Assembly: GCA_002900995.3 (NCBI GenBank) | Contig: CM035306.1 | Location: 4,330,008-4,394,007 of the forward strand | Length of the DNA: 64,000 bases | Source of the DNA: Ganoderma boninense | Taxonomy: Eukaryota > Basidiomycota > Agaricomycetes > Polyporales > Polyporaceae | Direction of reading: 5' to 3' | Shown here: positions 17,950-43,219 of the stretch, in pieces | Position numbering within the stretch: the first letter of the stretch is position 1 | How the letters are laid out: each line of letters opens with the position of its first letter | Program-made: the position numbers and the translations under genes | Notes under the pieces: generated by a model | The model's database searches: none | What the model saw: the letters and a program-made list of their open reading frames with translations, nothing else | What the model was told of the DNA's origin: nothing

Positions 17950-18123
17950 GCAATGTCCGGCCCGAGGACGAAATACATATTGAGCACAGCCCAGACGACT
18001 CTTCGAATCTCAGATCACAGTCAGAAGCCTGAAAATGAGAAAACATTCTGCAACCGCACCGCCACGGCGAGTCACCTCTCATCCCCACTCCAGCAGCAGC
18101 AGCAGCAGCAGCCACGAGCCAAC

Positions 18124-20222
18124 ATGATATTCCTGCAGGCCAAGAACGACCCGAACATCGTCGCCCAACGCTTTCTAGACGGCCTCCAACATGGGCAGTA
18201 CAAACTTGGGTGAGTGTCCTCGGAATCCACGTCCTTACGTTACCCCTCTCCTCCCCGGAGAAGGACTGAATACGAGTCGGCTTGATACTAATGTAAACAC
18301 TATCCGCGGGTTCCACAGGCATGAAACGGTACGTCCTGCTCCCCGAGCTCCTGGAAAGTTACTCATTTCTTTCCCTTTCTCTCACCCATACGACTGATTC
18401 CGAAATTCACCGGTGCTCACCGCGTTTCCTCCCGGGCAGCTCAAAGACCTCAACAACACAATGACCCTCCTCCTGTCCTTCGTGCGGCACCAAATGAACG
18501 CCCACGCACCCATCCACGCGCTCCCCACCGAGCTCCTCCAGCTCGTTTTCGCGCACACCCTTGCGCCCTCCCCGGCATTCCTCCCATTCGACGCAGACGG
18601 CGCTAGAGCGGACGTCCGCGCGGAGGCCCGCCGCACCCTCGCCCTCACCCACGTCTGCCGTCGCTGGCGGACCATCGCGCTCGATACTGCCGCCCTCTGG
18701 ACACGCGTACCATTCGCCACGCATGCTCCCGGCAGTGTTGGCGACGGCACGCCCGCACAATCCGAGTCCGAGCCTACCGCGAACTCCGACTCCGCCTGCG
18801 CGGCCGCGTTCCTCGCGCGATCCAAGGCCGCGTCCCTGCACATCCACGCTCCGTTCCCAGCATCGCCGTTCTTCCGGATGGCGCTCGTGCCGCACGCAGG
18901 ACGCGTTCGTTCTCTTGCCCTCACTGTCCCTGCCGAGGAGCGCTCCACGGTCCCCGATAAGAGCGCCTCCGACCTCGCACTGCCCTTCTCCCTCCCGGAC
19001 TTGGAATCTCTCGCGCTCACGACGGAGTGCGATCCCTTCGATGATCGCCGGCCTTTGCTTGACCTGCACGCACCTTGCTCATTGTTCTCCCCCACGCCCA
19101 ACCAACACCGACCTGCAGAAGACGGAGACGAAGAGGAGGAGGAGGAGGAGGATGGGGGTATGCCCCGTCTGCGCCGCCTCCTCCTCCGGAACATGTGCTG
19201 GGTCCCACAGGCGCCGCTCAGCCAGCTCACGCACCTCTTCCTGACCGAAGGCACCTCCGTCCCGCTCCCGTCCCTCCTCTCCTTCCTCGCCCGCTGCGCC
19301 GCCCTCGAGGTGCTCATCCTCGCCGACGTCTACGTCGACGTCGCCGGCACACACACGCCCCTGCCGCCCTCACCAGAACACCGCGTGGCTCTGCCAAGGC
19401 TGCGCCGGTGCACGCTGGGCATCGCGGGCGCGCTGCTCAACATGCGGCGCGTGCTCGCGCACGTCGAGTTCCCGCCCGACGTGACCGTGCGCGTGATCGG
19501 GAGCAGGGCCTTCCACGCGCTCTCGCACCTGTCGCCCTTCCCCGACCTCGCGTTCGCCCAGGCCCTCGACACCCTCTCCGTCGACTTTGCCCCGCACACG
19601 CACGCGCCCTCTCATACCCATACCGGAGGCGGGGGCATCGTGATCCGCGCGTCCGGGCCTGTGAGCGAGAACGGGAGGCGGCCGGGGCTGCTGCTCGGAC
19701 TTCCCGACGTACCGCGGGACCCCGGCCGAGTGCGAGCTGATGCGGGGCCTGATGCGCGCGCTCGTCCCGCTCGAGCGGCTCGCCGACGTGCGCTACCGCG
19801 TGTGCGCGCACCAGAAGGAGCCGATGCACGTCCTCGGGGGCGACGGCGTCACCTTGGACGCGCTCAGGACGTTCAGGCTCGTCGAGGGCGCGTGTGCGCA
19901 CCACGACCAGGGTCAGGGCGGGGAGGCGTTCGGAGATGCCGTCAGGAAGGTGCTGGGCAGGTGTCCAGGGCTCGAGGAGGTGGAGGTGTGGGCCGATGAC
20001 GCGGGGATGCCGGCGAGGCTCGTTAGGGACGGATGTCCTGCGCCGGCGCTGGCGAAGATGGTCGTGCATCGCAGCGGCGGCGGTGGGATGATACGAGACG
20101 AGGACATGGCGGCCCTCCGGGAACACGTGGGCGACGTCGCCGTGTGTCGGCGCTCGTGCTCGCCATCGATGGAGATCGCAGGGACGGACATCGACTGGGT
20201 GGAGTCGCCGTTCGAGTGGTAG
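18124..20222 (+). CDS. F-box protein (copy A), frameshifted
   Basis: Exons 18124-18209, a 10-nt microexon 18319-18328, and 18440-20222. Seen: an N-terminal F-box (HALPTELLQLVFAHTL, then THVCRRWRTIALDTAALW), an acidic DGDEEEEEEEDGG tract, and Leu-rich segments (PRLRRLLLRNMCW, LEVLILADVYVDV) consistent with an LRR-like target-binding half. Known: F-box proteins link Skp1-Cullin1 ubiquitin ligases to substrates and are expanded in Agaricomycetes. Compared with copy B there is one extra G at 19697-19698. It throws the last ~175 codons out of frame and gives a stop at 19999; the original frame resumes at once (19700-20222) and ends identically. This is either recent inactivation or an assembly indel; the substrate is unknown. 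Confidence 0.82.
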
Positions 20223-21020
20223 GCGAGGGGTCGGTTTGGCGTGGGGGCGATTAGGCGGGTGAGTCGGTCCTGTCTTGTCATCTTTATGCGAGGCCGCCGA
20301 GGTTAAACCAATGTTCCAGGACATGGTGGAAGGCGAAGAGGTGTCCGGGGAGGAGGCACGCGACGTCCTGCGGAGGTGTCCGGAGAAGATTCAGATGGAG
20401 GTGCAGGCATGGGACTCGAAGATGCCAGTACGACCCACAAGGACGCGCGCCCTGCGCCTGCGCTTGCAAGGATGGTGGTTCGGACATGGTGACCCACAGA
20501 GAGCTCGCGCCGATGTCGCTCTGTGTCGGTGGTCGTGCTCGTCCATCGATGAAGCCCCCCTTAGAGTGGTTGGCCGGTCTGCCGGTTCGGTGGGGGTCAT
20601 TAGGCGGGCGAATCGGTCTTGTAGTCCATTGACTGGCCCGGCCGCCAAGGTCGAGTCAGCGTTCTAGGAGGAGGCGGAAGACAAGGGCGCGTTCGGGGAG
20701 GCGACGAGGGGTGCCGTAAGGACGTGTGAGCCGAGGACAAAGCGATGCCGGCGACGCTCGTGAGGGACGGAGCCCTCCTGCCGCGTTGGGGCTCGTGCCC
20801 ACCGAGCGATAGGAGGCCTGCTACAGCTGGTGGGGGGATTAGGCGGGTGAGTCTGTCCTATCTCCTCCTCTCGGACTTGCGAGGCAGCCGAGGTTAATTC
20901 AGTGTTCCAGGGCGGGGTGCAAGGGCATGGAGACGTACGTCCGTGGAGGCGATTGGGTCGACTCGTCCTTGGTCTTCAGGTGGTAGGAAGTCTGCCAGAT
21001 GGTGGGGGCGGGGGGGGGGA
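20223..21020 (+). repeat. Tandem degenerate copies of the F-box gene 3' end (unit A)
   Basis: After the F-box stop, three successively weaker copies of the gene's last ~300 bp follow (about 20290-20580, 20660-20830, 20900-21000). Each is introduced by an intron-like spacer beginning GGGTGAGTC and ending CCAGG or GCAGG. The first keeps protein-level likeness (EEARDVLRRCPEKIQMEV against the parent's DAVRKVLGRCPGLEEVEV). The last keeps only the terminal GDWVDS-like codons and stop. Confidence 0.7.
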
Positions 21021-21935
21021 TTAAGCGGGTGAGTCGGTGCTCTCTTGTTCTCTATTGACTCGCGAGGCCGCCGAGGTTAATTCAATCTTGCAGGCACCTG
21101 TCGGCTAGCAGACAGACGGTCAGCGCACATCCGCCCCTGGCCTGAAAGCGTGCTTCCTGGAACTTACACCTCGTCGGAGCGCGGAGGGGGGCACGCGGAG
21201 AGAGGCATCGCCATGGACGTGAACAATGTGGGCCCCGCGCATGCACGTCGCGGGCGCACTCTCTCGCCCATCGCGTTTTACACTGGTGCGCAGAGCAGAG
21301 CGGGATCCTGATCAGCTGTTGAATACCATAATAATAGGGCGCAGCGTAGCATCGTCATGTGGGCGAGTCGCGTACTTACCATTGTATATAATAGGCACTT
21401 GTTCCGGGACGATTCCACAGCGCGCACGAGGGCAATGCGGCAGTAGCACGCAGCTAGTACCCCCACTTACGAGACGGCGAACTGGCAGAGGTCTGAGATG
21501 GGGCGTAGGGACGCCCCGGGCTGGGGGAGGCGGTGTGGCACGCCAAGGTTCGCAGAGGACGTCACTATGTCCGGTGTTCGCAGGATGTCGGTGTGCTTCG
21601 AGAGCCGTCGCAGACAGTGCGAGACTCACAGGACTTGGAAGTGGCGCGACGACTGTGCCGCTGATTGTTCGGAACCGCGTGCCGTGGGCATACTACAAAT
21701 TACGACGAAGGCTTCTAGGCATGGGCCCCTCTAGGCCCCTAATTCTAGGCTGCGGGGCAACAACTGGGACTTTCTACTTACCATCGCGTTATTCATCCAG
21801 TTATCAACAGTTAGGGAGGGAGGGTCAAAATGACCAACAAAGCGGCAACAAGTTGTTCTATCAAAAAATACACAAACTTTGTGCAAGTCAACCCTAGTCA
21901 ACCTCGATGTTCGAAAAAGGACGTGTACGAGAAGG

Positions 21936-22035
21936 NNNNNNNNNNNNNNNNNNNNNNNNNNNNNNNNNNNNNNNNNNNNNNNNNNNNNNNNNNNNNNNNN
22001 NNNNNNNNNNNNNNNNNNNNNNNNNNNNNNNNNNN
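21936..22035. other. Assembly gap (100 N)
   Basis: Exactly 100 N, the conventional size for a gap of unknown length. Its left edge corresponds to about 26395 of unit B, just before the Helitron. Its right edge begins with the 47-bp sequence also found at 41741-41787. Confidence 0.98.
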
Positions 22036-22082
22036 GTCGGTCGAGGAGGCAGACGCCGGCGTCCTCGACCGACAAGCCATGC
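22036..22082. repeat. 47-bp contig-end repeat with 12-bp inverted arms (left copy)
   Basis: Identical to 41741-41787. The first 38 bases form an imperfect hairpin with perfect 12-bp arms (GTCGGTCGAGGA and its complement at 22062-22073). It lies directly against the gap. Confidence 0.9.
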
Positions 22083-22617
22083 AAGCGGGTAGATAGAGAA
22101 CCGGGTGTCGCAGAGATGGAACACGATGGGTGTGGTCCGTGCGGCGCGGAAATGCGGCTCAGACGAGACAAAAAAACAGCCGAGGTTGAGCCAGCCGAGA
22201 GGAATGCGACGGAGATGGAGAGCTGCGCGGAGAGCCCGCGGACATCAACGGAGAGCGTCGCGGACGACGTCGCAAAAACGCTGGCTCCTGCGGAGCTCGC
22301 GATCGCGGAGAGCAGCGCAGGGACACGACGCGGGAGGCGTTGTTGGTTCGTGTCCTGTCCGACGCTGTCTCTTGAGCTCGAGTCTACGCTGGCTCTGTCC
22401 GCGAGCACGGGCTGTCATTGGCTAGATGGGCGCCCGGGGGCCCGCCCCGCGCTGTCCGGCCCGAGGACGAAATACACATCGAGCGCAGCCCAGACGAGTC
22501 TTCCCATCTCAGATCACAGTCGCAAGTCTGAAAACGAGAAAACATTCCGCAACCGCACCGCCACGGCGTCGCCTCTCGTCCCCACCCCAGCAGCAGAAGC
22601 AGCATCCACGGGCCAGC

Positions 22618-24695
22618 ATGATATTCCTTCAGGCCAAGAACGACCCGAACGTCGTCGCCCAACGCTTTCTAGACAGCCTCCTACATGGGCAATACAAACT
22701 CGGGTGAGTCCTCAGAACCCAACGCCTTACGTTACCCCCTCCCGCGAGGAGGACTGAATACGAGTCGGGCAGGCACTAATGCGACCCTACCCGTGGCTTC
22801 CACAGACATGATACGGTATGTCCCCTCCCCGAGCTCCTGGAAAGCTACTCATTTCTCGTCCTCCTCTCGCACAACCGATCCCGAAATTCACCGGTACTCA
22901 CCTGCTGCGCCGACAGCTTAAACACCTCCACGAAACGGTCATCCTCCTCCTGGCCTGCGTGCGGCACCAAATGAACGCCCACGCGCCCATCCACGCCCTC
23001 CCCACCGAGCTCCTTCAGCTCGTCTTCACGCACACCCTCGATCCCGCAGCGGCCTGCCTCCCGTTTGACCCGCCGGGCGCTAGAGCCGACGTCCGCGCGG
23101 AGGCCCGCCGCACCCTCGCCCTCACCCATGTCTGCCGCCGCTGGCGCACCGTCGCGCTCGACGCCGCCGCCCTCTGGACACGCGTCCCTTTCGCCATGCA
23201 ACCTCCCGGCAGTGCTGGCCACCGCACACCCACACAGTCCGAGTCCAAGCCCATGTCCGACTCCGACTCCGCCTGCGCGGCCGCCTTCCTCGCGCGATCC
23301 AAGGCCGCGTCCCTGCACATCCACGCGCCGTTCCCAGCATCGCCGTTCTTCCGGATGGCGCTCGTGCCGCACGCAGGACGCGTTCGTTCTCTTGCCCTCA
23401 CTGTCCCTGCCGAGGAGCGCTCCACGGTCCCCGATAAGAGCGCCTCCGACCTCGCACTGCCCTTCTCCCTCCCGGACTTGGAATCTCTCGCGCTCACGAC
23501 CGAGTGCGATCCCTTCGATGATCGCCGGCCTTTGCTCGACCTGCACGCACCTTGCTCATTGTTCTCGCCCTCGCTTGACCGACACCGACCTGCAGAAGAC
23601 GGAGACGAAGAGGAGGAGGAGGAGGATGGGGGTATGCCCCGTCTGCGACGCCTCCTGCTCCGGAACATGTGCTGGGTCCCGCAGGCGCCGCTCAGCCAGC
23701 TCACGCACCTCTTCCTGACCGAAGGCACCTCCGTCCCGCTCCCGTCCCTCCTCTCCTTCCTCGCCCGCTGCGCCGCCCTCGAGGTGCTCATCCTCGCCGA
23801 CGTCTACGTCGACGTCGCCGGCACACACACGCCGCTGCCGCCCTCGCCCGAGCACCGCGTCGCCCTGCCAAGGCTGCGCCGGTGCACGCTGGGCATCGCG
23901 GGCGCGCTGCTCAACATGCGGCGCGTGCTCGCGCACGTCGAGTTCCCGCCCGACGTGACCGTGCGCGTGATCGGGAGCAGGGCCTTCCACGCGCTCTCGC
24001 ACCTGTCGCCCTTCCCCGACCTCGCGTTCGCCCAGGCCCTCGACACCCTCTCCGTCGACTTCGCCCCGCACACACACTCTCATACCAATACGCATGCCGG
24101 GGCCGGGGGCATCGTGATCCGCGCGTCCGGGCCTGTGAGCGAGAACGGGAGGCGGCCGGGGCTGCTGCTCGACTTCCCGACGTACCGCGGGACCCCGGCT
24201 GAGTGCGAGCTGATGCGGGGCCTGATGCGCGCGCTCGTCCCGCTCGAGCGGCTCGCCGACGTGCGCTACCGCGTGTGCGCGCACCAGAAGGAGCCGATGC
24301 ACGTCCTCGGGGGCGAGGGCGTCACCTTGGACGCGCTCAAGACAATCCGCATCGTCGATGGCGCGTGTGCGCACCACGACCAGAATCAGGGTGGAGAGGC
24401 GTTCGGGGATGCCGTCAGGAAGGTGCTGGGCAGGTGTCCGAGGCTCGAGGAGGTGGAGGTGTGGGCCGAGGATGCGGAGATGCCGGCGAGGCTCGTTAAG
24501 GACGGATGTCCTGCGCCGGCGCTGGCGAAGATGGTCGTGCATCGCAGCGGCGGCGGCGGGATGATACGAGACGAGGACATGGCGGCCCTCCGGGAACACG
24601 TCGGGGACGTCGCCGTGTGTCGGCGCTCGTCCTCGCCATCGATGGAGATCGCAGGGACGGACATCGACTGGGTAGAGTCGCCGTTCGAGTGGTAG
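22618..24695 (+). CDS. F-box protein (copy B), intact
   Basis: Exons 22618-22703, a 10-nt microexon 22806-22815, and 22917-24695 give 624 aa. Same architecture as copy A: a short N-terminal helix (MIFLQAKNDPNVVAQRFLD), F-box around residues 50-110 (HALPTELLQLVFTHTL, VCRRWRTVALDAAALW), acidic EEEEEDGG tract, Leu-rich repeats, and a C-terminus ending AGTDIDWVESPFEW. The microexon is needed to keep frame (K-L-G-H-D-T-L-K) and both its splice signals are conserved in copy A. Upstream of the ATG, similarity between copies extends about 170 bp, so both likely share a promoter. Role: substrate receptor of an SCF ubiquitin ligase by family; the target is unknown. Confidence 0.88.
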
Positions 24696-25475
24696 GCGAG
24701 GGGTCGGTTTGGCGTGGGGGCGATTGAGCGGGTGAGTCGGTCCTGTCTTGTCATCTTCGTACGAGGCCGCCGAGGTTAAACCAATGTTCCAGGGCGCGGC
24801 GGAAGGCGAAGAGGCGTCCGGGGAGGAGGCATGCGACGTCCTGCGGAGGTGTCCGGAGAAGATTCAGATGGAGGTGAAGGCACAGGACTCGAAGATGCCA
24901 GCACCCGCGCGCCCTGCGCTTGCGCTTGCAAGGATGGTGATTCGGACATGGCGGCCCTCAGAGCTCGCGTCGACGTCACCCTGTGTCGGTGGTCGTGCTC
25001 GCCATCGATGAAGCCTCCCTTCAAGTGGTTGGCCGGTCTGCCGGTTCGGTGGGGGTGATTAGGCGGGTGAATCACTCTTGTCGTCCATTGACTGGCCCGG
25101 CCGCCAAGGTCGATTCAGCGTTCCAGGAGGGGGCGGAAGCCAAGGAGGCGTTCAGGGAGGCGACGAGGGGTGTCGTAAGGACGTGTGAGCCGAGGACAAG
25201 GCGATGCCGGCGACGCTCGTGGGGGACGGGAGCCTTGCTGCCGCGTCGGGGCTCGTGCCTGCCGAGCGGTAGGAGGTCTGCTACAACTGGTGGGGGCACT
25301 AGGCGGGTGAGTCTGTCCTGTCTCCTCCTCTCGGACTTGCGAGGCAGGCGAGGTTAATTCAGTGTTCCAGGGCGGGGCGGGAGTGCAGGGAGACGTTCGT
25401 GGAGGCGATTGGGTCGACTCACCCTTCGCCTTCGAGTGGTAGGAGGTCTGCCAGAGGGTGGAGGCGGGGGAGTTT
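24696..25475 (+). repeat. Tandem degenerate copies of the F-box gene 3' end (unit B)
   Basis: Same series as in unit A, at about 24763-25050, 25125-25300 and 25365-25450, again separated by GGGTGAGTC…CCAG spacers. The presence of the same decay series in both units shows the tail duplications are older than the unit duplication. Confidence 0.7.
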
Positions 25476-26718
25476 AGGCGGGTGAGTCGGTGCTCTCTTG
25501 TTCTCTATTGACTCGGGAGGCCGCCGAGGTTAATTCAATCTTGCAGGCACCTGTCGGCTAGCAGACAGACGGTCAGCGCACATCCGCCCCTGGCCTGAAA
25601 GCGTGCTTCCTGGAACTTACACCTCGTCGGAGCGCGGAGGGGCACGCGGAGAGGCATCGCCATGGAGTGAGCAATGTGGGCCCCGCGCATGCACGTCGCG
25701 GGCGCACTCTCTCGCCCATCGCGTTTTACACTGGTGCGCAGAGCAGAGCGGGATCCTGATCAGCTGTTGAATACCATAATAATAGGGCGCAGCGTAGCAC
25801 CGTCATGTGGGCGAGTCGCGTACTTACCATTGTATATAATAGGCACTTGTTCCGGGACGTTTCCACAGCGCGCACGAGGGCAATGCGGCAGTAGCACGCA
25901 GCTAGTACCCCCACTTACGAGACGGCGAACTGGCAGAGGTCTGAGATGGGGTGTAGGGACGCCCCGGGCTGGGGGGGGGCGGTGTGGCACGCCAAGGTTC
26001 GCAGAGGACGTCACTATGTCCGGTGTTCGCAGGATGTCGGTGTGCTTCGAGAGCCGTCGAAGACAGTGCGAGGCTCACAGGACTTGGAAGTGGCGCGACG
26101 ACTGTGCCGCTGATTGTTCGGAACCGCGTGCCGTGGGCATACTACAAATTACAATGCAGGCTTCTAGGCATAGGCCCCTCTAGGCCCCTAATTCTAGGCT
26201 GCGGGGCAACAACTGGGACTTTCTACTTACCACCGCGCTATTCATCCAGTTATCAACAGTTAGGGAGGGAGGGTCAAAATGGCTAACAAGGTCGCAGCAA
26301 GTTGTTGTTCTATCAAAAAATACACAAACTTTGTGCAAGTCAACCCTAGTCAACCTCAATCTTCGAAAAAGGACGTGTACGAGAAGGAGGTACAAGGCTT
26401 TACAGTTTCTATGTGACATTGCCAGTAGCGCGTGCCTTGTACTATTGCAGATTAGGTGATTAGGTACTTGCATTCATCTACGCCGTTGTGTAAAGGAACG
26501 AGGCGTAACGAGCTCCCCAGCGTTGAGTGGCAAGCGAGACAGCTTAACAACCGGCTTAACAATTACTACCATATTACGCTTTTCCCCCGTATCTGTTGAC
26601 CTTTATTTACCTCATCTTAGGCGCTTTTCACTGCTCATCGTTGTCGTCATCCGTTCCTCCTCATCGTCTTCGCTGCTCCGACCTTCCTCCTATACATACA
26701 CCTCTGTCTCCATCCACC

Positions 26719-27743
26719 ATGCCCACTGTTCAATCTACGTTCGTCGTCCTCGGCTTCTTCCAGCTTTGCAATGCTTCTCGTCTGGAGTCGCCACGACGCA
26801 CAGATCCTTCATCCTCGACATTTCACTATCAATACGACACTGCTCTTCAATGTGCAGACGACTCAGCCCTCGCTGCAAAACTTCGCTTCTTTAGTCCCCC
26901 TGGAGATGTCCCTGTACCTAACAAAACGGTGTGCTTAGTAGAGGCCAAAGTTCACGTCTCTGCGCACCGCGGACCTGTCTTCCTCGAAGGCATTCGCTAC
27001 GCTCCTGTTCCTGGCGATGCCAACGCCGACGATTATCAATCGGCCGTACCGGACTTGACGTACGGCATCGTTCACGCGGTCGGCGTCGTTCAAGATGTCT
27101 CTGCAGACGCGCGACCTGGAGACAACCGGTATTTTCGTATGCAGTTGCAAGCTTGGGTACGTGACGATAATCGTCCGTGTAGTATCATGTACGTCTTTAC
27201 ATTCTCTTCATTTCCATGTCGTAACCTCCTTTTCCTTTTCAGCTGCGTCATGCCCGGTACCGTTGCGCGCTGGCGCAACATCCGTTTGCCTCACGTCAAT
27301 ACAGGCGTCTACATCTCTGGCATCTGTGGTCGCATTCGCGACGACGGCATGCTTGAAGTCATTCTCGACAACATTCTCTTCAATCTCATCGTTGTTCCCG
27401 CTACAGCGCTAGGCGATGACGTACCTTGGCCAACTCCTCCTGCAGCCAAACGTCAGAAATTCAATGCTATTCCATTCAAACCGTATGTTGTGCTTACTTC
27501 ATTCTTATGCTTCGCATTTCTTTCTTACGCACTGCGTCATCTATTTGTAACAGCGATGAGCTTTCCACACCGTCGTCTGCTTCATCTCAACAGGCGCCTC
27601 TTGACTCCTCTCATCCCGCATCTCCTCACGACAGTGTCGCATCTTCACACACTGCTCGCTCTACGTCTCCTACTCGTAAGTCAGATCATGCCCAAGCTCA
27701 CATGTATTCAACGCGCGCCGCAGAGAAGCGCAAAATGTCGTAG
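26719..27743 (+). CDS. Helitron-linked OB-fold-like protein
   Basis: Exons 26719-27188, 27243-27482, 27554-27743 give 299 aa. The first intron (54 nt) is divisible by three and open, so it can be missed. Seen: a central domain with strands typical of a single-strand-binding OB fold (YFRMQLQAWVRDDNRPCSI, CVMPGTVARWRNIRLPHV, NTGVYISGICGRI, MLEVILDNILF), then a Ser/Pro-rich tail ending AAEKRKMS. It lies 191 nt before the Rep-helicase start, in the same orientation. Known: some Helitrons carry RPA-like proteins. Inference: this protein binds single-stranded DNA during rolling-circle transposition. The fold is judged from pattern only. Confidence 0.65.
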
Positions 27744-27934
27744 CTTATCTTCGTTCCCCTATCTTACTCAGCAGTGACGCACGATGCTTTCCTACATATT
27801 GTTCCGTGTTCTCTTTCTTTTCCGCGCTCTTCTACGTAACTCGACGTCGTCTCCTATCGTCTCTATGCTCAATGTAACGTACATCTCAACGTCTGTTTCC
27901 TGTGTATTATATTCACCGATTCCTAGCTTCTGCT

Positions 27935-30900
27935 ATGACGCAGCCTTCGAATACATGGACAATAGTCCTCTCTTCCAGCAGCTCTCTTCAATGGGGTGCC
28001 GTGCGTGGTGGTCGTGCACATGCATGTCCTACGTGTGGTATTGCATTGTTGACAGGAGAACAAGCAGGATTTTGTTGTGGTCCACATGGAAGCCATCTTG
28101 CCGACGTTCCACCTCTACCTCCTTTACCCCCTGAACTGACTGTCATCCTCGACGATCCTCGCATCTCTTTTTTATCACGCAAACTTAACCTTCTCTTCGC
28201 GCTCGCCGCAATGGAGACCACCATTCCTTTCGTCAAACTTCGAGGCCCGCAAGGATTCTTCTCCATTCAAGGCCGAGTTTTTCATCGACTACGTGCCGAG
28301 CATGAAGACTCACCCGTACACTGGATAGTGTACGATGGGTTCTCTCTCCAAAACCCTCCTCACTCCCGCTACGCCCACGCACTGCCTCAAACGTGGATTG
28401 AGCACATGCGAAATGCTCTACTTCGCATCAATCCCTATATACGCTCTCTTCGCATCTTAGGAGACCTCGACCCTACGTCGTGTCCTGAAGCACACGTTAT
28501 CCTTTCCGACGCCGCTGGATGCACTCCTGAGCTTGCCGCCATCATACGGTACGACAACTCTACGCAACCGGACGTCCGTCCACGTCGACTAATCGTCGCA
28601 CGTACTGACAATCAAAACGTCACTGTGCCGACTACCAGCCGCTTCTGGGAGCCGTTATCGTACCCACTGTTTTTCCCCCACGGCACGTTAGGATGGGGCA
28701 TCCCTCGCTCTGATCCTTGCGTTACTCAGTTCACGTCGTCGCAGCCAACTTCCTCAGCCGGCGATTCTGAGCCTGTGTCCACTCAAATCTGGCGTTATCG
28801 AGGATTGCTATTGCGTGAAGAACGATTCGCGCGCTTCGGTTGGCTCACCAATGAGTATGTTGTCGACATGTTCAGCCGCAATCTCGAAACTCGCATGACG
28901 TTTATCCGCGAAAATCAACGCAAAATTCAAGAAGAAGATGCGGCTCAAATGGGCGTCGACTTCGTTCAGCCGAACGAAAACGTCTACCTCCCTGCTTCCT
29001 TCTTAGGATCTAATCGCTGGGCTTCAGATCAAATCGCAGACTCTCTCGCGATCGCCGCGGCGTATGGTCCTCCTACGTTTTTCATCACCATGACGTGCAA
29101 TCCAGATTGGCCTGAAATCAAAGCACAATGTCGCCCCGGTCAAACCTTTCGCGATGTGCCAGTCGTCGTTTGCCGCGTCTTCAAACAAAAGCTCTCTATG
29201 CTAGAACATGATCTTCGTACCATGTTCCCCAACGCTGGTGGCGTCGAATACATCATCCACTCCGTTGAGTTTCAGAAGCGTGGTCTTCCTCATGCCCACA
29301 TCCTCGTACGCTACGCAAAAGATTGTGTCCTTCCTGACGATATCGACAGCGTAGTTTCTGCTGAAATTCCCGACGATCCTGCTGATGCTCAACTCGTACG
29401 CGAATTCCTCATCCACGACCATAAACCTTATTGCTCTCCTCAACAACCAGACGGAACACGTGGTCAATGTCGATTTCATTATCCCAAACCTTTGCAACAG
29501 CACACTTCTGTTGACAGCATTGGTCACGTTCACTACCGACGCCGAAAACCCGAAGACGCTTTCGTCGTGCCACACTGCTTACCACTGGTGCGCAAATACC
29601 ACTGTCACATCAACTTCGAGGTCGCGAACACGTCGCACATCTTTCAATACCTCTTCAAATACATTCACAAAGGTCTCTGCTTCGCGTCTCTTAATATAAC
29701 AACCACTTACTTTCTTTCGCTCCCTTAGGTCCTGACAGAGCAAAATTTGCTGTTGTCTCCGATGCTCCTTCTTCGCAATCGTCTACCGCTCACGTAGACG
29801 AAATCAATGAATACTGGGATGGTCGTTATCTCTCAGCGGCGGAAGCCACTTGGCGCATCCTCGGTTTTCATATCACCAAGAAAGACCCTGCGGTATCAGC
29901 TCTTCCTGTTCATACGTACATCAACCGCTCCCACCATCGTCAATACGGGCACCAAGAGCAATCTCTTTCATTCTTAGAGCGCTACTTCCGACGTCCGCTT
30001 GGCACATTCATCCGATCGACTGGCGACACATCCACCTTCGACTCTCTCACATATTCCGACTACTTCACTCTTTTTCGCCTCACACCGTGGAATGCTTCCA
30101 ACGACGATCGTCCTCTATATTACAATGAAAGTGTCCGCGATGCAGCACCACGCTGTCACGTTGTCCAACGCCAAATGTCACACCCTCATGTCGCACGCTT
30201 ACATGCTGCACGTCCCACTGAAGGAGAACGCTTCTACTTGCGCACCATTCTTCGCAGTCGTCCCGTACGCTCCTTCGTCGATGCCCGTACAGTCGACGGT
30301 ATTGTCCTCGACACCTTTCAAGATGCCGCACACGCACTCGGATTATTCGCAGATGTCAACGAAGGTGAACTCGCACTCATTGAAGGCATTCAATCCCTCC
30401 GTACCCCACTTCAGCTTCGCGTGCTCTATGTCCACCTCCTCGTCAACGATTGCCTTCTCGATCCCCGCTGCATATGGACAACTCACAGCAACGCCCTATC
30501 TTTGGACTGTATTGATAGACGTGGTGGTGTCCTCTGTTTAGGTGAAGACGACGCTCTCAATCACATTGCCTCCCTTCTCGAAGAATATGGTCACTCTCTC
30601 GATGACTTCGCTCTTCCACATCCTTCTCAACACTCCACAGAAGTCGCCCATGAACTAGCACGCTGGAATCCTATTGCACATGAACTCGGCACTCGCGCAC
30701 AGAATGCACTATCTCAAATGAATTCCGATCAGCTCAGCGCTCTCCAGCCCATCCTCTCCGCTGCTCATAACAACACTCCATTGCTCGTTTTCATCGATGG
30801 TCCTTCAGGCACAGGGAAAACCTTCGTTGTCAATGCTTTATGCGACTTTGTCCGTTCCCTCGGACTCATCGTCCTCGCCACCGCAACATCTGCATATGCT

Positions 30901-32128: not shown

Positions 32129-32324
32129 TTCTATCATCTTTCAAGCTCGCGACCTTGACCCGCCGGAGCGAAGCGACGGCGCGTCTTGTGGTTGTTCACT
32201 GTTGTTAACTCGTTCTAGCGCCCGGTTTATTAATCATTAACAAGGCCAGTCAATTGAAAGGTCTTGAACTATCCGTTAATAATTGTTCGTTACTAATCGA
32301 TTGGCCGCACCCTTCCGAACTCTC

Positions 32325-32889: not shown

Positions 32890-33432
32890 CGCGATCGGAC
32901 AAGCGTGAAGGATCCGCGTCTGGCGCCCCGTCACGTCCACAACGACCGGACAGAACGCGTTGGTTAGGGAGGGCAGAGATCGAGCATCCGGACGGTGGGG
33001 TGGTGGATCGAGCAGCCAGGGTGGGAGTGCACAATCGGACGGGGGAGCGCTGCAGGATTCAGACGCAGAGGACGAGGGCTGCGCTCGTAACACTTACATG
33101 TGCGCTGCTATATCCTGTCTCCGAGAAGTGTGCAAAAGCCCGCCGTGCCCGCGCCCGAGCTTTGCGCAAGATGAGCACACAGATGCAAGCACACACAAAG
33201 AAGGCGCATGTACAAGCTTGAGCTTCCGTGCACACACCGGCCCACATCTCCTCATCGCAGCAAGTACTCGCCCCAGATCGCACACGCACACGCAACGCCG
33301 AAGTCCTCGAGCCACACAGGCACGATCAACGCCCGGCATCCTCGTGCACCCCGCCGCAGACCGACGCACTCGCCGCCCTCCACGCCCGTGTGCAGCTAGA
33401 TGCTGAGAAAAGCACGCACCAATTCGACGCCA

Positions 33433-34888
33433 GAGGATGGCGGTATCCGCATCCAACTCAGCGACGCTGCGACGCTCTCCGCGTGCTCAGCCCTCAGTCG
33501 CCAAGTCGAGGGGGTATATGCAACGCCGGACGATCGTTTCTACGAGAAACAAACCGGATCGTTACCGTACAACGGCGCCGCGCGCTGTCCAATAAGCATT
33601 CGCCTTGTCCGAAAACAGACGGCAGCCCTCGCAGTCCACCGCCACCTTGCCCCGTCGGCGGACATCCTGTCGGGAGCACATCTGCAGTCTGCACATGGAC
33701 GAAACAGCGCGGTCCGACGTCGAGCTATACAGACATGAACGGCACCGGAAGTCCTCGCCACCCCTGCAGCGCGACATCCCACCGGACACAAGCAAGACCG
33801 ACCGACACACTCGGAGTCCGAGTGTCCCGCCTAGTGAAATGGCCGCGGATGGCGGTATCCGCATCCAACTCTGTGATGCGCGACCCCGCGCTCTCCATTG
33901 CCTAAGCCCCGCGTTAGTCGTGTGTCGAGGGAGTGGGTACGACATCCGCAGAGCGATCCTATGAACAAATCTGGAGATAGTGAGCATACAACCACGGCCG
34001 CAGCGTTAAAGTAAGCACTCACTTGGTCCAGAAGACAGTCGCAACGCAGACACCGCCAGGAGAAATCTCAGAAGGAAGCGCCTCGACATGAGGATCCAAC
34101 TTTCAGTTGTATCGCAGTGTCAGTATGCAGTCTGGTGAGGGCGACCGAGGATGGCGGAATCCGCATCCAACTCTGAGATGCGGCCCCGTGCGCTCTACAT
34201 CCCCCGGACTGGTCGTGTCTCGAGAGGGAACCCTAGGAACACACCAAAAGACAGTGAGCGAACGACGGCGGCCGGACTGACAAATCAGCACTCACTCGGT
34301 CCGGAGGACGGCCGCAAACCAGAACAGTTGGGCGCAAGCTTACCTGAACAGCACAACCCGGCGTTGAATCTTCGGGAAAGGCGCCGTCCCGGCGCGACGA
34401 TCCAGCAGTCAACTGACCGCAGGAAATCCGAGGCCGATACACTTGTATTCGAGTGTCCATACGCAGTCTGATGAGGACACCCGAGGATGGCGGTATCCGC
34501 ATCCAACTCAGAGGTGCGGCACCGCGCCTCTCCGTCCCCTTGGCACCAGCCTCGTAAGCTGTCGAAATGGGAAATACGAGACCGGCTGAGCGTTCCTGAG
34601 AAGCTAACAGGGTGGTCAGCAAACGACAGCAACTGGAGACTCGAAACAAGCACTCACATGTGCCAGAAAACCAGAACAGTCGAGGCCGCGCTGCCCTTCC
34701 CGAATCCGACTTTGAGCCGGACAAGCGTGAACTTGGCGAGAAGAACGCTGGAGATCTTCGGGGAACGCGCCAATAATACATTCGTCAACTGACCGCAGGA
34801 AATACAAGAACAACGCACTCGTACCTGAGCATCCATCCACAGTCTGGTGAGACCGGCCTGAGGATGGCGGTATCCGCATCCAACTCAG
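33433..34888 (+). repeat. Degenerate tandem array, ~300-410 bp period, five units
   Basis: The core GAGGATGGCGGTATCCGCAT-CCAACTC recurs at 33433, 33846, 34147, 34483 and 34860. A second block (AAGCACTCAC-t-TGGTCCAGA-like) follows each of the last four cores at about 34011, 34290, 34648 and 34998. A third (CTGACCGCAGGAAAT, about 34415 and 34790) precedes two of them. No long frame survives across units. Confidence 0.75.
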
Positions 34889-36709
34889 AGATGCGGAGCC
34901 CTGGACAATAGTCGTCTGTAGATACGAGATCCGCCGTTCGTTCCTGGAAGATCAACGGAGGGTGAGCAAAGATCAGCATCCGGTGCTTTGAAACAAAGGC
35001 TCACCTTCACTGGAACAACAGTCGCAATTCACAACGGTCGAGCGCTGCCGTCGTCCATTTGGCGGCCGTCGAGACGACGGTTCAATCCGGACATCGACAT
35101 AGAGTCGGACACGCGTTCCTGGGTTCTGTGGAACAATGGTCAGCGAACAGAATACAGCCAACACGACCATGCGATGCATATTCTGAAGGCTTGACGGCAT
35201 GGCCATGTTGCCAAAGATACCGGGAGGAAGCTGGCATCCGGGGAAGAGATCTGTCGACGATGACGGCCTCCCTCTCGACTCACGACGTATCAAAGCCACA
35301 ACGACGAGGGCACAGTAGAGCGGAGCACGGGCTGGAGTCCAAGTCTTGCCGGCTCACGAGCACGAGACTTGAAGGCAGGCAGGACGTACAACAGCGCCGA
35401 AACACACACGAACAGCGACCGCCCGTCACGAAGATGCTCAAGATGCCTCGCATCCGTGAACGGACGAAAGCTTTCCTGCCTGTAATGGACGTTCACCACG
35501 CGTGCGCAACCTTGTGAAGACAGGTACGCACGCGGGCGAGTCGTCTAAACGACTCTCGAGCTCGCCACCACCCCGAGACCGTGTTCAAGACATACAACAA
35601 CCTGAAACTCACCACGTAAAACATCTACACGGCGCATCCTGTACGTCCGAGGCTCCTGCGGATGCGACCTGTGATGGGGGAACGAGGACATGCAAGGGCG
35701 GGATGGCGAGATCGACGGATGGGGAGGAGTGATCTGCCGGTCGGAGGGAGAGACGCAGGGTGGCTGAGCGAGACGAGGGATGTGCGGGAGGAGGAGACAG
35801 GACGGGATATTGACGGCGCGAGTCCTGTTTTGTTCGCAGCCAACAAAATTCGGAACATCTGGGAAAGCGGATAGCGGATATTAGCGACGGCGCCCGAGCA
35901 CAGACTAAGATCTCGCGTTACTAGGTGGTTTGGCAGGCGCGCCGGCTCTATCCGCACGTCTCGCACCAGGCGGCGGAGCTGAGAGGTTACTCCTGCCGCG
36001 CCCATGGTTTACATACATTGGGGCACTTGAAACGAGCCTTGCCGGCCGTGACTCAGATCGCACTGACCAGTCCGCCTCCGCCCGCGCGTGACCGGAGGCT
36101 GGGCAGAGACTCACTTTGTTGCTTCCAGTCTCCTCCGTCCCACCGACGTCCGATGTTTTGATACGGGGCATTGCGCTTGGTGGATCGAAGGAAGTCACGG
36201 CCGCCGGTACTGACAGGGAGAGATCTCAAGCACCCCATGGCCGAAGTTCAGGAATGTTAAACATCATAAATCTTACATAGCAGCGGGTTAGTAATCGATG
36301 TATGTTCTAAGCGGAATGGGGCTCACGGTGGCCGACAGGACTGGTGTTGCGATTCAGCATCTGCGTGCCGGCACACGCTCGGCTCGCCGCGGGTCGGCAG
36401 CCTGTGACCAGTTGAAACCTGCAGTGATTATGCGAACACCATAACGGAGAGTGCGAAATGGGCCTGGATCCAATTTCTGGCGAACGGAGGAGATAGAAGG
36501 CTGGGGCCGTCGTGGAAGTAGAGAGCCAAGGCCCGGCAATGCAGCAAGGCAGTGCCACAAGGGTCCAGGCGCCGGACGCTGCCTTTTGCGGTCACTCTCC
36601 CAACCGCCCTCCCGCCGCTCCTTGTCCCGAACCACATACCCGTCTACCCAACCGCCGCCGCCGACGGCGCATTGATCGCATACAAAATTGCAAGTCAAAT
36701 ACAAGGTGA
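34889..36709. other. Gene-poor stretch, no gene supported
   Basis: Continues the array's decayed sequence to about 35050, then unique sequence without supported coding regions on either strand. Confidence 0.45.
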
Positions 36710-37278
36710 CTAATCAGTGAACTCGTCGATCTCTGACGCCTCGCCCTCGACCTCCGACGGCCAGACGGCGTCCTCGATCGGGTCCTCCGAGTCCTCCTCT
36801 CCCTCGACGGTGTCGGCGGCCGCGGGCTGCGGAGCAGGGAGCGGTGTGCCCGGGAGGACGGCTGTTGGGTTCCAAACGGCAAGGTCGACGTCGTCTTCGC
36901 TTGCATCCTCGAAGCGGAGCACACCCGACGTCCACAAGGAGAGGAGAAGGTCCATGACGGGCTGGCCGCCCGGGACGTCGCTCAGGTTGCCAAACGGCAC
37001 GCCCGCGTACGTCGGCCACCCCTTCAGAATTTTGCCGCCCCTGATGACGATGTGCCGCGCGTAGCCCTTCGCAGACCACCGCATGCGCGCCCTGCGGTTG
37101 CCAGTCAGGTCTTCTGCTGACGACGATTAGCATAGATTCTGGACAAAAATGGCTGGTACGTACTTAGATTCTGGTCCATGAGCTTGCGAATGCGCGCCCG
37201 AAGCTCGACTAGCCGGCTCGACTGGGACTTTGTCGTCCGAGTCGCCCTCGCTCGGCCAGTGCGGCGGTGCACCGGCAT
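36710..37278 (-). CDS. Uncharacterised 172-aa basic/acidic protein
   Basis: Minus-strand exons 37278-37164 and 37113-36710, one 50-nt phase-1 intron; an upstream in-frame ATG at 37356 would add 26 residues. Seen: an N-terminal basic segment (MPVHRRTGRARATR), an RxR-K-rich middle (VELRARIRKLMDQNLKDLTG, ARMRWSAKGYARHIV), then a conserved-looking core (KILKGWPTYAGVPFGNLSDV, DLLLSLWTSGVLRFED) and a strongly acidic C-terminus (DTVEGEEDSEDPIED). The GWP…PFGNLSDV…L…LWTSG pattern resembles a family of unknown function common in Agaricomycete genomes, often in repeat-rich regions; this is from memory and unverified. It is the only supported gene in the 33-41.7 kb stretch. Confidence 0.6.
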
Positions 37279-40200
37279 GGAGGTGGTCGTATTTGAGCGA
37301 GGGTAGGCTGTGGCCTTGCGGTGGATAGGCGGTACGTAGACGGCGAGCACGAGCACGCGTTTGGCTGAGGTTTTTCGTCTGCTGGCATTATATGGTAGAT
37401 ACGACTGTGCGTTCTCGGGACGAGCCTCTCCCGTCCTGTTTGCCGGTTTGGCACAGATTCAATACATTCCAGCCCCCCGGGCGTGGTGCTCACCAAACGA
37501 AGCTGACCCTCGCCTCTAGTTCCTGCAGCCGATCCTGTCAGGTCACCGTCGCGGCGGTAACTGTTCGCTCTCTCCCGCACTGGAGCGTAACAGGTGCATT
37601 GCAGGATAATGCCTGGCTTGCGCACGCCGCGTATCGAATTGCCGCGGCTAGAACACCTCGGGCACACTCATGCGGCCGTCCCAAAGCGGGATCTGTGGGC
37701 GCATTTGAGCTGTCTCCCAGACCGGCGAAGCGGTAAGCCTCTCGTCCTTTCATTTCTTCCTTGTGCTCGGTGTGGGCGAGTGCAACTTGCTGCGGTGATG
37801 AAACATTGTGTCTCTGTATGTCAGCATCTGTCTGCGTCCTTTTGGTGCTCGTGTCATTTCGGAGGCTCCGCAGGTGAGTACGCTTCGGTTCCCTGCCTCG
37901 ACTGGTCGAATGAATCGATTCGATTCCTCGGTCCGCAGGCCTTCTAGCCAGCAAGGCACCTCGCGCCTGCCTTCCGCAGTGTCCGCTTGTACTAGAGACG
38001 CTGCTTGTTACAACCCGGGAGCAGTCTGCACGGCTCAGTCCCGAGTGTTCCACCACGCTCCGCAATCGCGCACATGCTTGGCAACCGAGGTATGTGCCTG
38101 GTAATTTCCAACGGCGGCCTCTTTGACCAGAGGATGTTCAGTGGCATCATGCGTCCTGTCGAACGATTCTCAATTTGATTCGCTAGGTCGCGAGGCGCTA
38201 TTCAGGTCTGCCGTCATGTTTCTCTTCAAGGCTGCCGTTGCTGAGGCATTTGCAGCGGCGTGCAAATGCCCGTGTTGGATCTTTCGTATGTCATGTACAT
38301 ATCTCGGGCATCCGATGTCTCTCCTCACCAGTAACAGTTTCAGCATCCCGAGCCCTCGCGTGTTCAAGTGTATGGCGGCGTACATTCAAGGCGCATGCCC
38401 GCTCAGTGTTCCTAGGCCTGGGAAACACTTGCGCTCAGCAGACTCGGAGTGAGTCGGTGTTATCGGTGAGTGACTTGTTGTGCATTCGGTGCGTCCCAAT
38501 CTCCGAACATGACAGTAAGCACGAGTAGTCGCGAGTGCCCACTTACTCCCTGGCACCGCATCATCTCGCGTGTGCCTTGGCTTTCGCGCTATTTCTCTGA
38601 CAGCGCAGTCAAGGTTATCCCTCCAATGTTATTGCTTAGCGAATGACGGCCGGAAGGCGGAGATTGTTGCTCTTGATCGGCAACGTCTGGGGGCATGGAA
38701 GAGCCTTACGAAAGCAGGGCTGGAGCTCCATTGTACTGTGGCTCTCTTATGCTTCGCTGGCCTTGAGTCACCATTCATTCGATGGCTTTTTCGAGCCCCA
38801 TGCTGCTATTCTAGCCGTTGATACTCTCCAGGTTCCAATGTTTCCCGGATGCGGACATTGGGGCGCAGACATTGTCCACACGCGAGGGCAGACACACCGC
38901 AGCGTGCCAACGTCAGTCAGCTGACAGTAGGGCCGTGTTCTGTTCGGGTATGGAGCGGTCACCACAGCGAACACGCCGGTCGCTGCGCTGCTTGGCGAGT
39001 TGTTTCATGAGATATACATCAGCATTTGCGAACGGACGTGTCCGGACATGTCCATTTGCTTTGCCCAGCTCGCCTGAGCTCCAGGTAAGTGCCAGTGGTA
39101 GATGAAGCATTTATGGCACAGTATTCAGTGCTGATCCGCATCTCCGCAAGCTAATTCGAACGAGCACTCTTGAGTCTCAGGACCCTGTTTCTTCTGTCCC
39201 TCCTCTCCAAGCTCCGAGCGGGACCAATTCCTCCACCAAGTTATTTCAAACCGTTGCTCTGGGTACCGGCAATCCCGTCAGGCCTGTGTGCATCTGAAAA
39301 TCTGAGCGTGATTGCCTCGGCCGTGGTGAGCATCCCAACCGACGGCTGCGTTGCTGCCTCGTGCATCCTCGCACCCTATACCGGATGATCTATTCTTAAA
39401 TTCTAACCGATGTTTTCCAGGTTCGGTCACTTCCAGCCTACGGCCGAATCTGGCTGCAGGTTTGAAATTAGGAGATGTGAGCATGGACTCGACCCGGGCG
39501 TAGGTTAGAATGTCGAAAGGTGCTTCATTCGCGCTGTGAATCCAGAAGGAATATAATTAGTATTTCATGGCCAATGCTGGCCACTATGGGACAGCAAAAA
39601 TGACAGAGAGCACGAGAAACTGTGGACGGGCACGGCGACCGGACAGCCGTGAACGCAGCACATTGAGTTCATGCAAGAGAACTTGAGGTGACCATGCCAG
39701 GGGCGGCGTCCGGACTTCGGCCGCGAGCCCGACTGGCACGCCAAGGCTGGCGTCCAGTAAGTAGTGTTTGCATCTTGCGCCCATATTTCAAAGTGCACCC
39801 GTCCCTGGTCCGTCCGGCACGACATCCTAGTATCCGATTGACCAGGTCCTCCTGGTGTCTGGCAAAAGGACAAGCTTGCCGCAAATTCTGGTTGGATACA
39901 CACAATTCGAAGGGGGAGCAAGCCCGCCCAGCCACACGCGCGAAAGGCGCAAGGGACAAGATTCGAACAAGATATCATTAGACGTTGCAAGCGAGCCCGC
40001 CCGGACGGTCCCACGTCGCAAACGCAGGTACGTACACGCTGTGGCTACCAGATCACATCGATCACATCTCGTCTCGCGTACACGCGCAGATCTCCAATGT
40101 CCCGCGTACCGCCACGGCCCCCGAGACTACTGTAATTGTCTTGGCCCAGGTCGTTTCGGAGCGCCTGCCATTGCACCGACATCGTCATTCGCCGATCGCG

Positions 40201-41740
40201 ATGCGCCTGGGCCAGTGCAAAGGCGATGGCATCTGCTGGATCTGAATATCGCTTGGTGAGCGGCGTGGTCACTGGTGCGAACTGGCGAGCTCCGGGGACG
40301 CGGTACGTACCTTTCCCTCCATCCGGCACCGCCGTTACCGCCGTGCGCAATTCCTGGGCAGGCGGCCGGCTACGAAGATTAGGTGCACGTACGTACCGAG
40401 TTCAGGGACCAAGGTCCGTGAGACTCTGGCCGCGATTACCGCCTCACACGGGGGGTTCGGAGGTTCGGGGCCGCGTCGTCTCTCTCTGCGGATGGACGGC
40501 GGGCGGATTAGCACTGAAACAGCAGTCGAAATGTTCGGGTGAGCACGCACCGCAGGAAGGAATGCGCGCTCAAGCGGAGAGCGAAGCGGTCAGGAGCCAA
40601 ACGGGGCATACGTGCATGCGCAGGTACGTACTGTCGTTAGGGCCGTGCGCCGCCCAAGCGAAATCGGACGCCGCTCGCGAGCAACAATCGACCTGTTGCG
40701 GAGACAAGCACACAGGGCAGCGGTCAGCCAGATGATGCTATGGCGGAAACGACTGACCGGCCGCTCGTTTCACGAGGCCCGCCTCCACGCACAGACCAGG
40801 GCCAACGGCGTATATAGATGGCGCTCGAGGTTGGACAGCGACCGGCGTCCCCCGTCGTCCGTCTCGCCACCGTTGATGCCCCCTGTTCTCGCTTCTATCC
40901 TCCGCCCCGCGCACAGGCCGCGCGCCATCGAGTAAGGGCGGAGACCGCGTCTTGCGCTCGTGCATCGAAGATGCCCCCGAGAGCAGTAGGTGCCGCGTTC
41001 GGTGCGGTCACGGACCATACCCACTGCGGGCAGCTGGTTATCAAGACCGAGGGCCAAGCTGGTACGTCGTGTGCTTGCTGCTTCGACCCGACCCCATTTC
41101 TGATCGATTCCGGGCTAATTCTGAAGGCTGGCCGTCGGCCCGAGAGTCAAGGGATGCATGCCCAATCGGGCTCGAAGTGCGAAGGGTGGGAGAGGGCACT
41201 CGCTGGACACTGGAGCGTGTGTAAGCGGGCGTACATACCGTAGATAGACAACGTCGCATAGGTCCAGCAGCCAGGGCCCCGACGTGTGGGGCAGATGGCA
41301 TGTTGACATTGAGGAGGCAGGTGGTGCCGACGGAGAGGTGCGATGCGCGATGCGGGGGAGCGCAGATAACCGCGACGAGTGGAGGAGGCGGTCCGGAGGC
41401 AGCAGCCGGCTGGGGGAGGGCGCGGAGAGGCGCAGTGGTGACCGTTGGCCGTGGCCAGTGGCGGACGCCAACATCGGGCGGTACGAGATGTTCGCGCAGA
41501 ATCTGCAAGAACACCAGAGGGGCGGCGGAAGCGTTGGAAGAGGCGGACCGTGAATCCGATGTCGGGCTGGAACCGCAGTGTGCGCAGTGAGAGAGCAGGG
41601 CCGCTACGGGGATGTGCAGACTGTTGCCTAGTCAGAAACAGTCTGGAGGGTAAAGCGTGGAGAGCGAAGACGAGACGTCGATGGCGACGACGGGGTCAGG
41701 TGCGGCAGAGAGGCTAGTCGGGGACCGCGGGCGAAGACTC
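37279..41740. other. Gene-poor stretch with many short frames, no gene supported
   Basis: Both strands show only short frames without domains. GTACGTA, resembling splice donors, recurs at about 40026, 40303, 40385, 40622 and (partly) 41061, suggesting another eroded repeat series. Nothing supports a protein or RNA gene. Confidence 0.45.
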
Positions 41741-41787
41741 GTCGGTCGAGGAGGCAGACGCCGGCGTCCTCGACCGACAAGCCATGC
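41741..41787. repeat. 47-bp contig-end repeat (right copy)
   Basis: Identical to 22036-22082, and it ends exactly at the second N gap. The two copies terminate the sequence block between the gaps. Confidence 0.9.
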
Positions 41788-41887
41788 NNNNNNNNNNNNN
41801 NNNNNNNNNNNNNNNNNNNNNNNNNNNNNNNNNNNNNNNNNNNNNNNNNNNNNNNNNNNNNNNNNNNNNNNNNNNNNNNNNNNNNNN
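41788..41887. other. Assembly gap (100 N)
   Basis: Exactly 100 N. The left flank equals 22036-22082 and the right flank equals about 25472 onward of unit B. The missing piece would therefore correspond to roughly 22083-25471, which includes a whole F-box gene. Confidence 0.98.
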
Positions 41888-42640
41888 ATTAGGCGGGTGA
41901 GTCGGTGCTCTCTTGTTCTCTATTGACTCGGGAGGCCGCCGAGGTTAATTCAATCTTGCAGGCACCTGTCGGCTAGCAGACAGACGGTCAGCGCACATCC
42001 GTCCCTGGCCTGAAAGTGTGCTTCCTGGAACTTACACCTCGTCGGAGCGCGGAGGGGCACGCGGAGAGAGGCATCGCCATGGAGGTGAGCAATGTGGGCC
42101 CCGCGCATGCACGTCGCGGGCGCACTCTCTCGTCCATCGCGTTTTACACTGGTGCGCAGAGCAGAGCGGGATCCTGATCAGGTGTTGAATACCATAATAA
42201 TAGGGCGCACATAGCATCGTCATGTGGGCGAGTCGCGTACTTACCATTGTATATAATAGGCACTTGTTCCGGGACGTTTCCACAGCGCGCACGAGGGCAA
42301 TGCGGTATTAGCACGCAGTTAGTACCACCTCTTACGAGACGGGGAACTGACAGAGGTCTGAGATGGGTGTGGTCGTTGAGGCGTAGGGACGCCCCGGGCT
42401 GGGGGAGGCGGTGTGGCACGCCAAGGTTCGCAGAGGACGTCACTATGTCCGGTGTTCGCAGGATGTCGGTAGATGTCGGTGTGCTTCGAGAGCCGTCGCA
42501 GACAGTGCGAGACTCGCGGTCCTGCGAGAGGACAGGGAAGTGGCGCGACGACTGTGCCGCTGATTGTTCGGAACCGCGTGCCGTGGGCACACTACAAATT
42601 GCGACGCAGGCTTCTAGGCATAGGCCGCTCCAGGCCCAGT
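41888..42640 (+). repeat. F-box segmental duplication, unit C (3' part only)
   Basis: Matches about 25472-26176 of unit B and 21018-21730 of unit A, starting in the last intron-like spacer of the tail series. It switches near 42625-42645 into the start of block R copy 2, without the ~220 bp of unit B that precede the Helitron and without the Helitron itself. Confidence 0.88.
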
Positions 42641-42647
42641 ACTGTCG

Positions 42648-43219
42648 AGGAGACGCTACAATGTTCGTGAGATTGCGGCGGGCAGCGTCCTCAGAAGAAA
42701 TTGGAAGCGGGTCGGTCAGACGACAGGCGTCGTGTAACGGATGACGAGGAGGAGGTGCTGGGGAAGCGGGCGCCGAGAAAATCGGAATTCGGCAGGAGGG
42801 CGAATGCCGCGGGGCTTGGAAGGGCCCAGGCCCTGGGCCGACCTGGGTCTGCGGTCTAGAGCTGCGACCTGATTCCGCCGCGCCTCCTGCTGTCTTCCCT
42901 TGTGGCGTCCGAGGGCGGGCGGATGGACGTGTGCGCTGGCCACTGCCGACGAGTTCGTTATGCGCGGGCGGGGGGCGCAGCGGTGTCGGACGAGACACGC
43001 GCGGGTGGTGCTGTATTTGGATCGGGTGATTGCGGCGATCGATAACGGAGCAGGTGCGTGCAACGTGTTGGTGGCCCCGGCGACATACGGCGGGGGGGCC
43101 GGACGGAGAGGTTTGGGAGGTCTGCGGCTGGGGTTTGGAGGACATAGAATCGTATTGCGGTGTGGTAAGATCTGGAGGAGTTGCGCGGTGCCTGATTGTT
43201 TGACTGCGAGGGTAGCGGG
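42648..43219. repeat. Duplicated block R, copy 2
   Basis: Second copy of 32325-32889. It ends about 450 bp before the SKN7 start codon, so part of the duplication sits in or near that gene's promoter. Confidence 0.85.

What the first reader, a model, noticed from the sequence alone, without database searches (positions are those of the whole stretch)
17950..43219. A ~19.7 kb tandem duplication, with the two N gaps marking collapsed copies
The block between the gaps (22036-41787) starts and ends with the same 47 bp, as expected for one period of a tandem array or a circular molecule. Gap 1's flanks correspond to about 26395 and 41741 of that block, so the missing piece would be a second Helitron plus the 33-41 kb stretch (about 15 kb). 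Gap 2's flanks correspond to 22082 and 25472, so about 3.4 kb including a third F-box gene would be missing. One model explains both gaps, the F-box copies and the identical ends.
Basis: partly seen in the sequence, partly recalled or inferred. Interest (0 to 1): 0.82.

Follow-up and report, generated by a model that had tools for sequence, protein, structure and literature searches.

The report
Diverged F-box gene array around gaps

Summary
Two 100-N gaps flank a 19,752-bp contig whose first and last 47 bp are identical, with no other exact copy in the assembly. The contig's F-box block resembles the end of the left contig (91.6%), and two of its parts resemble the start of the right contig.

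The tandem reading is partly supported. Three dispersed paralogous loci carry the contig's right-end sequence upstream of sequence matching its left end and/or the F-box start, in the same orientation. One alignment crosses the predicted 41787-to-22083 junction. The 47-mer probably marks the same position upstream of copies B and C.

Collapse of identical copies is not shown. A and B are 84% identical up to about 18.78 kb and 95% after it. They are 95% identical in the last 197 aligned sites before gap 1. C lacks the 6.1-kb Helitron-bearing stretch, and A lacks the upstream module. The missing lengths (15.35 and 3.39 kb) are arithmetic, not measured. Three distinct tails and flanks without a full second copy argue against haplotype artefacts.

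Best reading: an ordinary, diverged F-box array with a mosaic middle copy, broken in assembly at two places.

The parts
17932..21935 (+). Copy A: F-box gene (one frame shift near 19.7 kb relative to B), downstream tail, and the first ~197 bp of the insert; cut by gap 1
21936..22035 (.). Gap 1, 100 N (apparently a default size)
22036..22082 (+). 47-bp element X, B-side copy; contains a hairpin with 12-bp perfect arms
22083..22430 (+). Upstream module of copy B; homologous sequence at C12 (upstream of an F-box paralogue) and C11; not found upstream of copy A
22431..26187 (+). Copy B: F-box gene (open frame 22812-24695, PF12937) and downstream tail; mosaic relative to A
26188..32318 (+). 6.1-kb stretch in B (first ~200 bp also in A), absent from C; carries Helitron Rep and PIF1 helicase frames; single copy found in the assembly
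32319..32887 (+). D block of copy B, 95% identical to 42641-43219
32888..41740 (+). S: stretch between D of B and X; relatives of its last ~1.6 kb lie upstream of F-box or upstream-module paralogues on C12, C5 and C11
41741..41787 (+). 47-bp element X, C-side copy
41788..41887 (.). Gap 2, 100 N; expected to hold copy C's upstream end and F-box gene
   Evidence: content inferred
41888..43219 (+). Copy C remnant: F-box downstream tail joined directly to the D block, without the Helitron-bearing stretch

Best explanation
This is a real, diverged tandem array of at least three copies (A, B, C) of an F-box gene neighbourhood in a Ganoderma-like fungus. The unit reads upstream module S-end, X, F-box gene, tail, (Helitron-bearing insert), D. 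The middle copy B is a mosaic: its 5' end and upstream module have a different history from A's, and its 3' part is A-like. Unequal crossing-over or gene conversion between older copies separated by S would produce this. The contig 22036-41787 runs from the upstream region of B to the same point upstream of C, so its ends share X. The gaps are ordinary assembly breaks in this array. Gap 2 probably hides the 5' part of C. Gap 1 hides the rest of A's insert and at least some S-like sequence upstream of B. Shown: the homologies, the identity break in A-B, and the order S-end, X, left-end sequence at paralogues. Inferred: crossing-over, the donor being C-like, the gap contents. Not shown: gap lengths or collapse.
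Confidence: 0.62

Rival explanations
1. One reading: a ~19.7-kb tandem duplication in which near-identical copies were collapsed, with ~15.35 kb (rest of the Helitron, D, S) missing at gap 1 and ~3.39 kb (F-box gene of C) missing at gap 2.
For: The phase arithmetic fits, and the contig-end junction has support from paralogues. A's insert is present for ~197 bp and then lost, and no second copy of this Helitron was found in the assembly. The last ~460 bp of D differ by only 5 mismatches between B and C (my count on the alignment). Contig ends sharing an overlap is what a collapsed loop would give.
Against: The last 197 aligned sites before gap 1 are 94.9% identical to B (187/197), with exact identity only in the final 26 bp. 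Overlaps at the three contig edges differ (26, 47, 113 bp), so they are not one k-mer length. C lacks the insert and A lacks the upstream module, so the period is not uniform. The assembler kept apart 15 exact matches of 51-197 bp between contigs 1 and 2.
Confidence: 0.25
2. Same array, but gap 1 is short because A's insert is truncated by a real deletion; the 47-bp hairpin X caused a sequencing break at the same place in two copies.
For: X folds into a hairpin with 12-bp arms (-18.1 kcal/mol, z -4.8, 0 of 200 shuffles as stable), and the contig begins exactly at its first base. Many Helitron Rep domains are assembled in this genome (36 of 37 matches over the cut-off, one of them the window's own), yet A's element is missing.
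Against: Both contig ends read right through the hairpin. Paralogues predict S-like sequence upstream of X, so something is missing.
Confidence: 0.25
3. Haplotype artefact: contig 22036-41787 is the other nucleus's allele of a dikaryon, placed in series.
For: A polymorphic dikaryon has been suggested for the G. australe assembly (PMC8955403, passages read). About half of the 258.5 kb of non-N sequence examined is covered by duplications of 500 bp or more.
Against: Three distinct tails. The flanks have no full-length second copy, only partial matches. The contig's end sequences (22036-22430 and S) do not match the flanks.
Confidence: 0.08
4. A circular molecule (extrachromosomal circle) of 19.7 kb.
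For: Identical 47-bp direct ends.
Against: Its sequence is homologous to both neighbouring contigs in order. Paralogues give a simpler reason for the shared ends. No origin or plasmid gene was looked for.
Confidence: 0.02

Closest known systems
Tandem gene arrays evolving by birth-and-death with unequal crossing-over and gene conversion (recalled concept, from no call)
   Same: Direct copies, mosaic identity, a frame-shifted copy, dispersed paralogues
   Different: Nothing essential; one copy is mostly hidden in a gap
Collapsed repeats at assembly gaps (recalled concept)
   Same: Gaps lie in a duplicated neighbourhood; contig ends share sequence
   Different: Copies differ by several per cent next to gap 1; depth not measurable
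Fungal Helitrons such as HELPO1 and HELPO2 of Pleurotus (PMC4289320, passages read)
   Same: Rep domain and PIF1-type helicase; by eye a short palindrome followed by CTTG near 32.19 kb, the 3' end reported for HELPO2
   Different: Single copy found in this assembly; termini not defined here; open frames split by apparent introns

Membership tests
F-box-like genes (PF12937) | F-box domain above the curated cut-off | tested here: met
   A 28.2 bits and B 28.6 bits against a cut-off of 24.3
Tandem array of the F-box unit | Three or more distinct direct copies in series | tested here: met
   A, B and the C tail, same strand, each distinct; order across gaps depends on scaffolding
Tandem array of the F-box unit | Uniform 19.7-kb period | tested here: not met
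   A lacks the upstream module; C lacks 26188-32318
Tandem array of the F-box unit | Right end of the contig precedes its left end in the unit | tested here: met
   C12 spans the junction; C11 and C5 keep order and orientation in part; C13 and two S relatives on C3 do not show it
Collapsed repeat | Excess read depth | not testable with these tools
   No reads held
Collapsed repeat | Copies near-identical next to the gap | tested here: not met
   187 of 197 aligned sites identical before gap 1, only the last 26 bp exact; sequence inside the gap cannot be seen, and at gap 2 the first 113 bp after contig 3's first base are exact
Helitron | Rep and helicase domains | tested here: met
   PF14214 135.2 bits; PF05970 64.4 and 89.8 bits
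Helitron | 5' TC, 3' hairpin and CTRR (CTTG in HELPO2) | tested here: inconclusive
   By eye a palindrome followed by CTTG at ~32.19 kb, inside the stretch missing from C; the computed fold pairs differently there; 5' end not identified (definition)
Haplotype false duplication | At most two versions, with allelic flanks | tested here: not met
   Three tail versions; flanks without a full-length second copy

The most novel reading that the evidence does not exclude
A recent unequal exchange inside the F-box gene duplicated a ~19.7-kb block containing an otherwise single-copy Helitron family. The strain would then carry two near-identical Helitron copies and three F-box genes in series, with almost 19 kb absent from the reference.
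Probability: 0.22. Interest if true: 0.35.

Novelty: new member of a known kind. Interest (0 to 1): 0.2.

Why it matters
Mainly for genome users: F-box gene counts near such gaps may be too low, and the locus is a small case in which conserved upstream order at dispersed paralogues suggests what lies across an assembly gap. It also shows a mosaic F-box copy in a diverged tandem array. It opens no new class of system.

Tried and rejected
Fixed-k overlap as the cause of the gaps: rejected, because edge overlaps differ (26, 47, 113 bp) and suffix-prefix overlaps directly across the 5 gaps of 264 kb are 0-1 bp.

Gaps caused by duplicated flanks in general: 5 of 5 gaps lie within 1 kb of a duplication of 500 bp or more, but duplications cover 49.5% of the region and P is 0.13, so this is not significant.

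Missing copies lying elsewhere in the assembly: not found. The Helitron is single, D is found twice, S is single apart from short or 65-72% relatives, and the nearest other F-box copy is C13 at 77%. The tool says its counts are lower bounds.

Haplotigs: judged unlikely.

What S encodes: 10 of the 121 open frames of 50 aa or more in 32888-41787 were scanned, with no Pfam match at E 0.1. Rfam: no match over the 64 kb at gathering thresholds. tRNAs: 0.

Species and assembly method: the named best protein matches are Ganoderma at 67-74%. Paper searches for 'Ganoderma' + 'genome assembly' + '74 scaffolds' and 'Ganoderma' + 'genome' + '55.6 Mb' gave 0 papers. Passages of the G. sinense paper PMC4457147 describe a different assembly (69 scaffolds, 48.96 Mb). 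Searches were seen as listings and abstract starts; I saw nothing on this locus in them.

The last 2.2 kb of the scaffold holds no telomere repeat run, so 'subtelomeric' is not claimed.

Full report
WHAT IS THERE. The window is C3:4330008-4394007 of a 55.6-Mb, 74-contig assembly. The F-box protein's closest named relatives are Ganoderma proteins at 67-74% identity. Two runs of 100 N bound a 19,752-bp contig. Its first and last 47 bp (X) are identical, and X has exactly two exact copies in the genome. Copy A (17932-21935) matches B (22431-26387) at 91.6%. The right contig starts with ~750 bp matching B's downstream tail, followed 3 bp later by 579 bp matching 32319-32887 (D). In B these two blocks are 6,131 bp apart, and that stretch carries Helitron Rep and PIF1 helicase frames. 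A has about 197 bp of the stretch before its contig ends; C has none of it.

GAPS. In 264 kb of C3 (7 bases next to the window not fetched) there are five gaps: four of 100 N and one of 5,091 N. I infer that 100 is a default size, so it neither supports nor excludes large missing pieces.

WHY COLLAPSE IS NOT SHOWN. A and B are not near-identical: 130 mismatches in 829 sites left of A 18783 and 155 in 3,123 right of it. Of the 197 aligned sites of the insert before gap 1, 187 are identical, and only the last 26 bp are exact. The assembler kept apart 15 exact matches of 51-197 bp between contigs 1 and 2, and 10 of 48-170 bp between contigs 2 and 3; one of the latter, 113 bp, begins one base inside contig 3's edge. 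The overlap lengths at the three contig edges differ. Against this, A's insert is broken off and its remainder was found nowhere else in the assembly, although Helitron Rep domains are assembled in numbers (36 of 37 matches over the cut-off, including the window's own). Either identity jumps to near 100% beyond the gap, or A's insert is truncated, or small contigs were dropped. These cannot be told apart here.

MOSAIC. The identity break at A 18783 has chi-square 104 against a maximum of 20 in 500 shuffles. In a three-way comparison with the C13 paralogue, the 5' part gives A-B 83.3%, A-C13 85.3%, B-C13 79.2% of 538 sites; the 3' part gives 94.9, 80.7 and 81.3% of 1,810 sites. So in its 5' part B is no closer to A than A is to a dispersed paralogue, while its 3' part is A-like. 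Together with A lacking B's upstream module, this suggests that B took its 5' end and upstream module from another copy, most simply a C-like one, by unequal crossing-over or conversion. But about 5% divergence has built up since, so the copies should not collapse unless later homogenised. Rapid evolution of B's 5' end is not excluded.

HAPLOTYPES. The tail exists in three versions (A-B 97.1%, A-C 96.2%, B-C 95.8% of aligned sites). The 8.4-8.8 kb of flank searched on each side has no full-length second copy: the right flank gives one 72-bp match, and the left flank gives partial matches, the best 86% over about 470 bp, on the same scaffold. Passages of PMC8955403 report a possible polymorphic dikaryon for G. 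australe, so the rival was worth testing.

CONTEXT. About half (49.5%) of the 258.5 kb of non-N sequence examined is covered by duplications of at least 500 bp, including a resolved direct pair about 10.3 kb apart at 96.5%. The array is one among many in this region. Against three Ganoderma proteins A and B score higher than C13 or C12, consistent with a lineage-specific duplication.

VERDICT. A real but ordinary diverged gene array.

Noticed in passing
C3:4230001-4266245 (L008-L011): Nested inverted duplications (arms up to ~3.6 kb at 86-92%) roughly centred on a 100-N gap at 4249654-4249753: a large imperfect palindrome or a false join.
   Followed up: no
C3:4407647-4415155 and 4417971-4425472 (L019-L021): Resolved direct duplication about 10.3 kb apart, 96.5% identical, with no gap between; it contains a 65% relative of part of S.
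   Followed up: partly
C3:4397076-4405767 and 4447529-4456237: 8.8-kb direct duplication at 91.5%; each copy starts within 1 kb of a gap.
   Followed up: no
window 33426-34896: A ~25-bp motif (GGATGGCGGTATCCGCATCCAACTC and variants) recurs about five times at irregular spacing.
   Followed up: no
window near 19.7 kb: Copy A's F-box frame shifts once relative to B, so A may be a pseudogene or carry a sequence error.
   Followed up: partly
window 26188-32318: 26400-32318 has no other DNA match in the assembly; 26188-27700 also hits A's stub and three short pieces on C9 and C10, although 35 other Rep-domain matches lie over the Pfam cut-off.
   Followed up: partly
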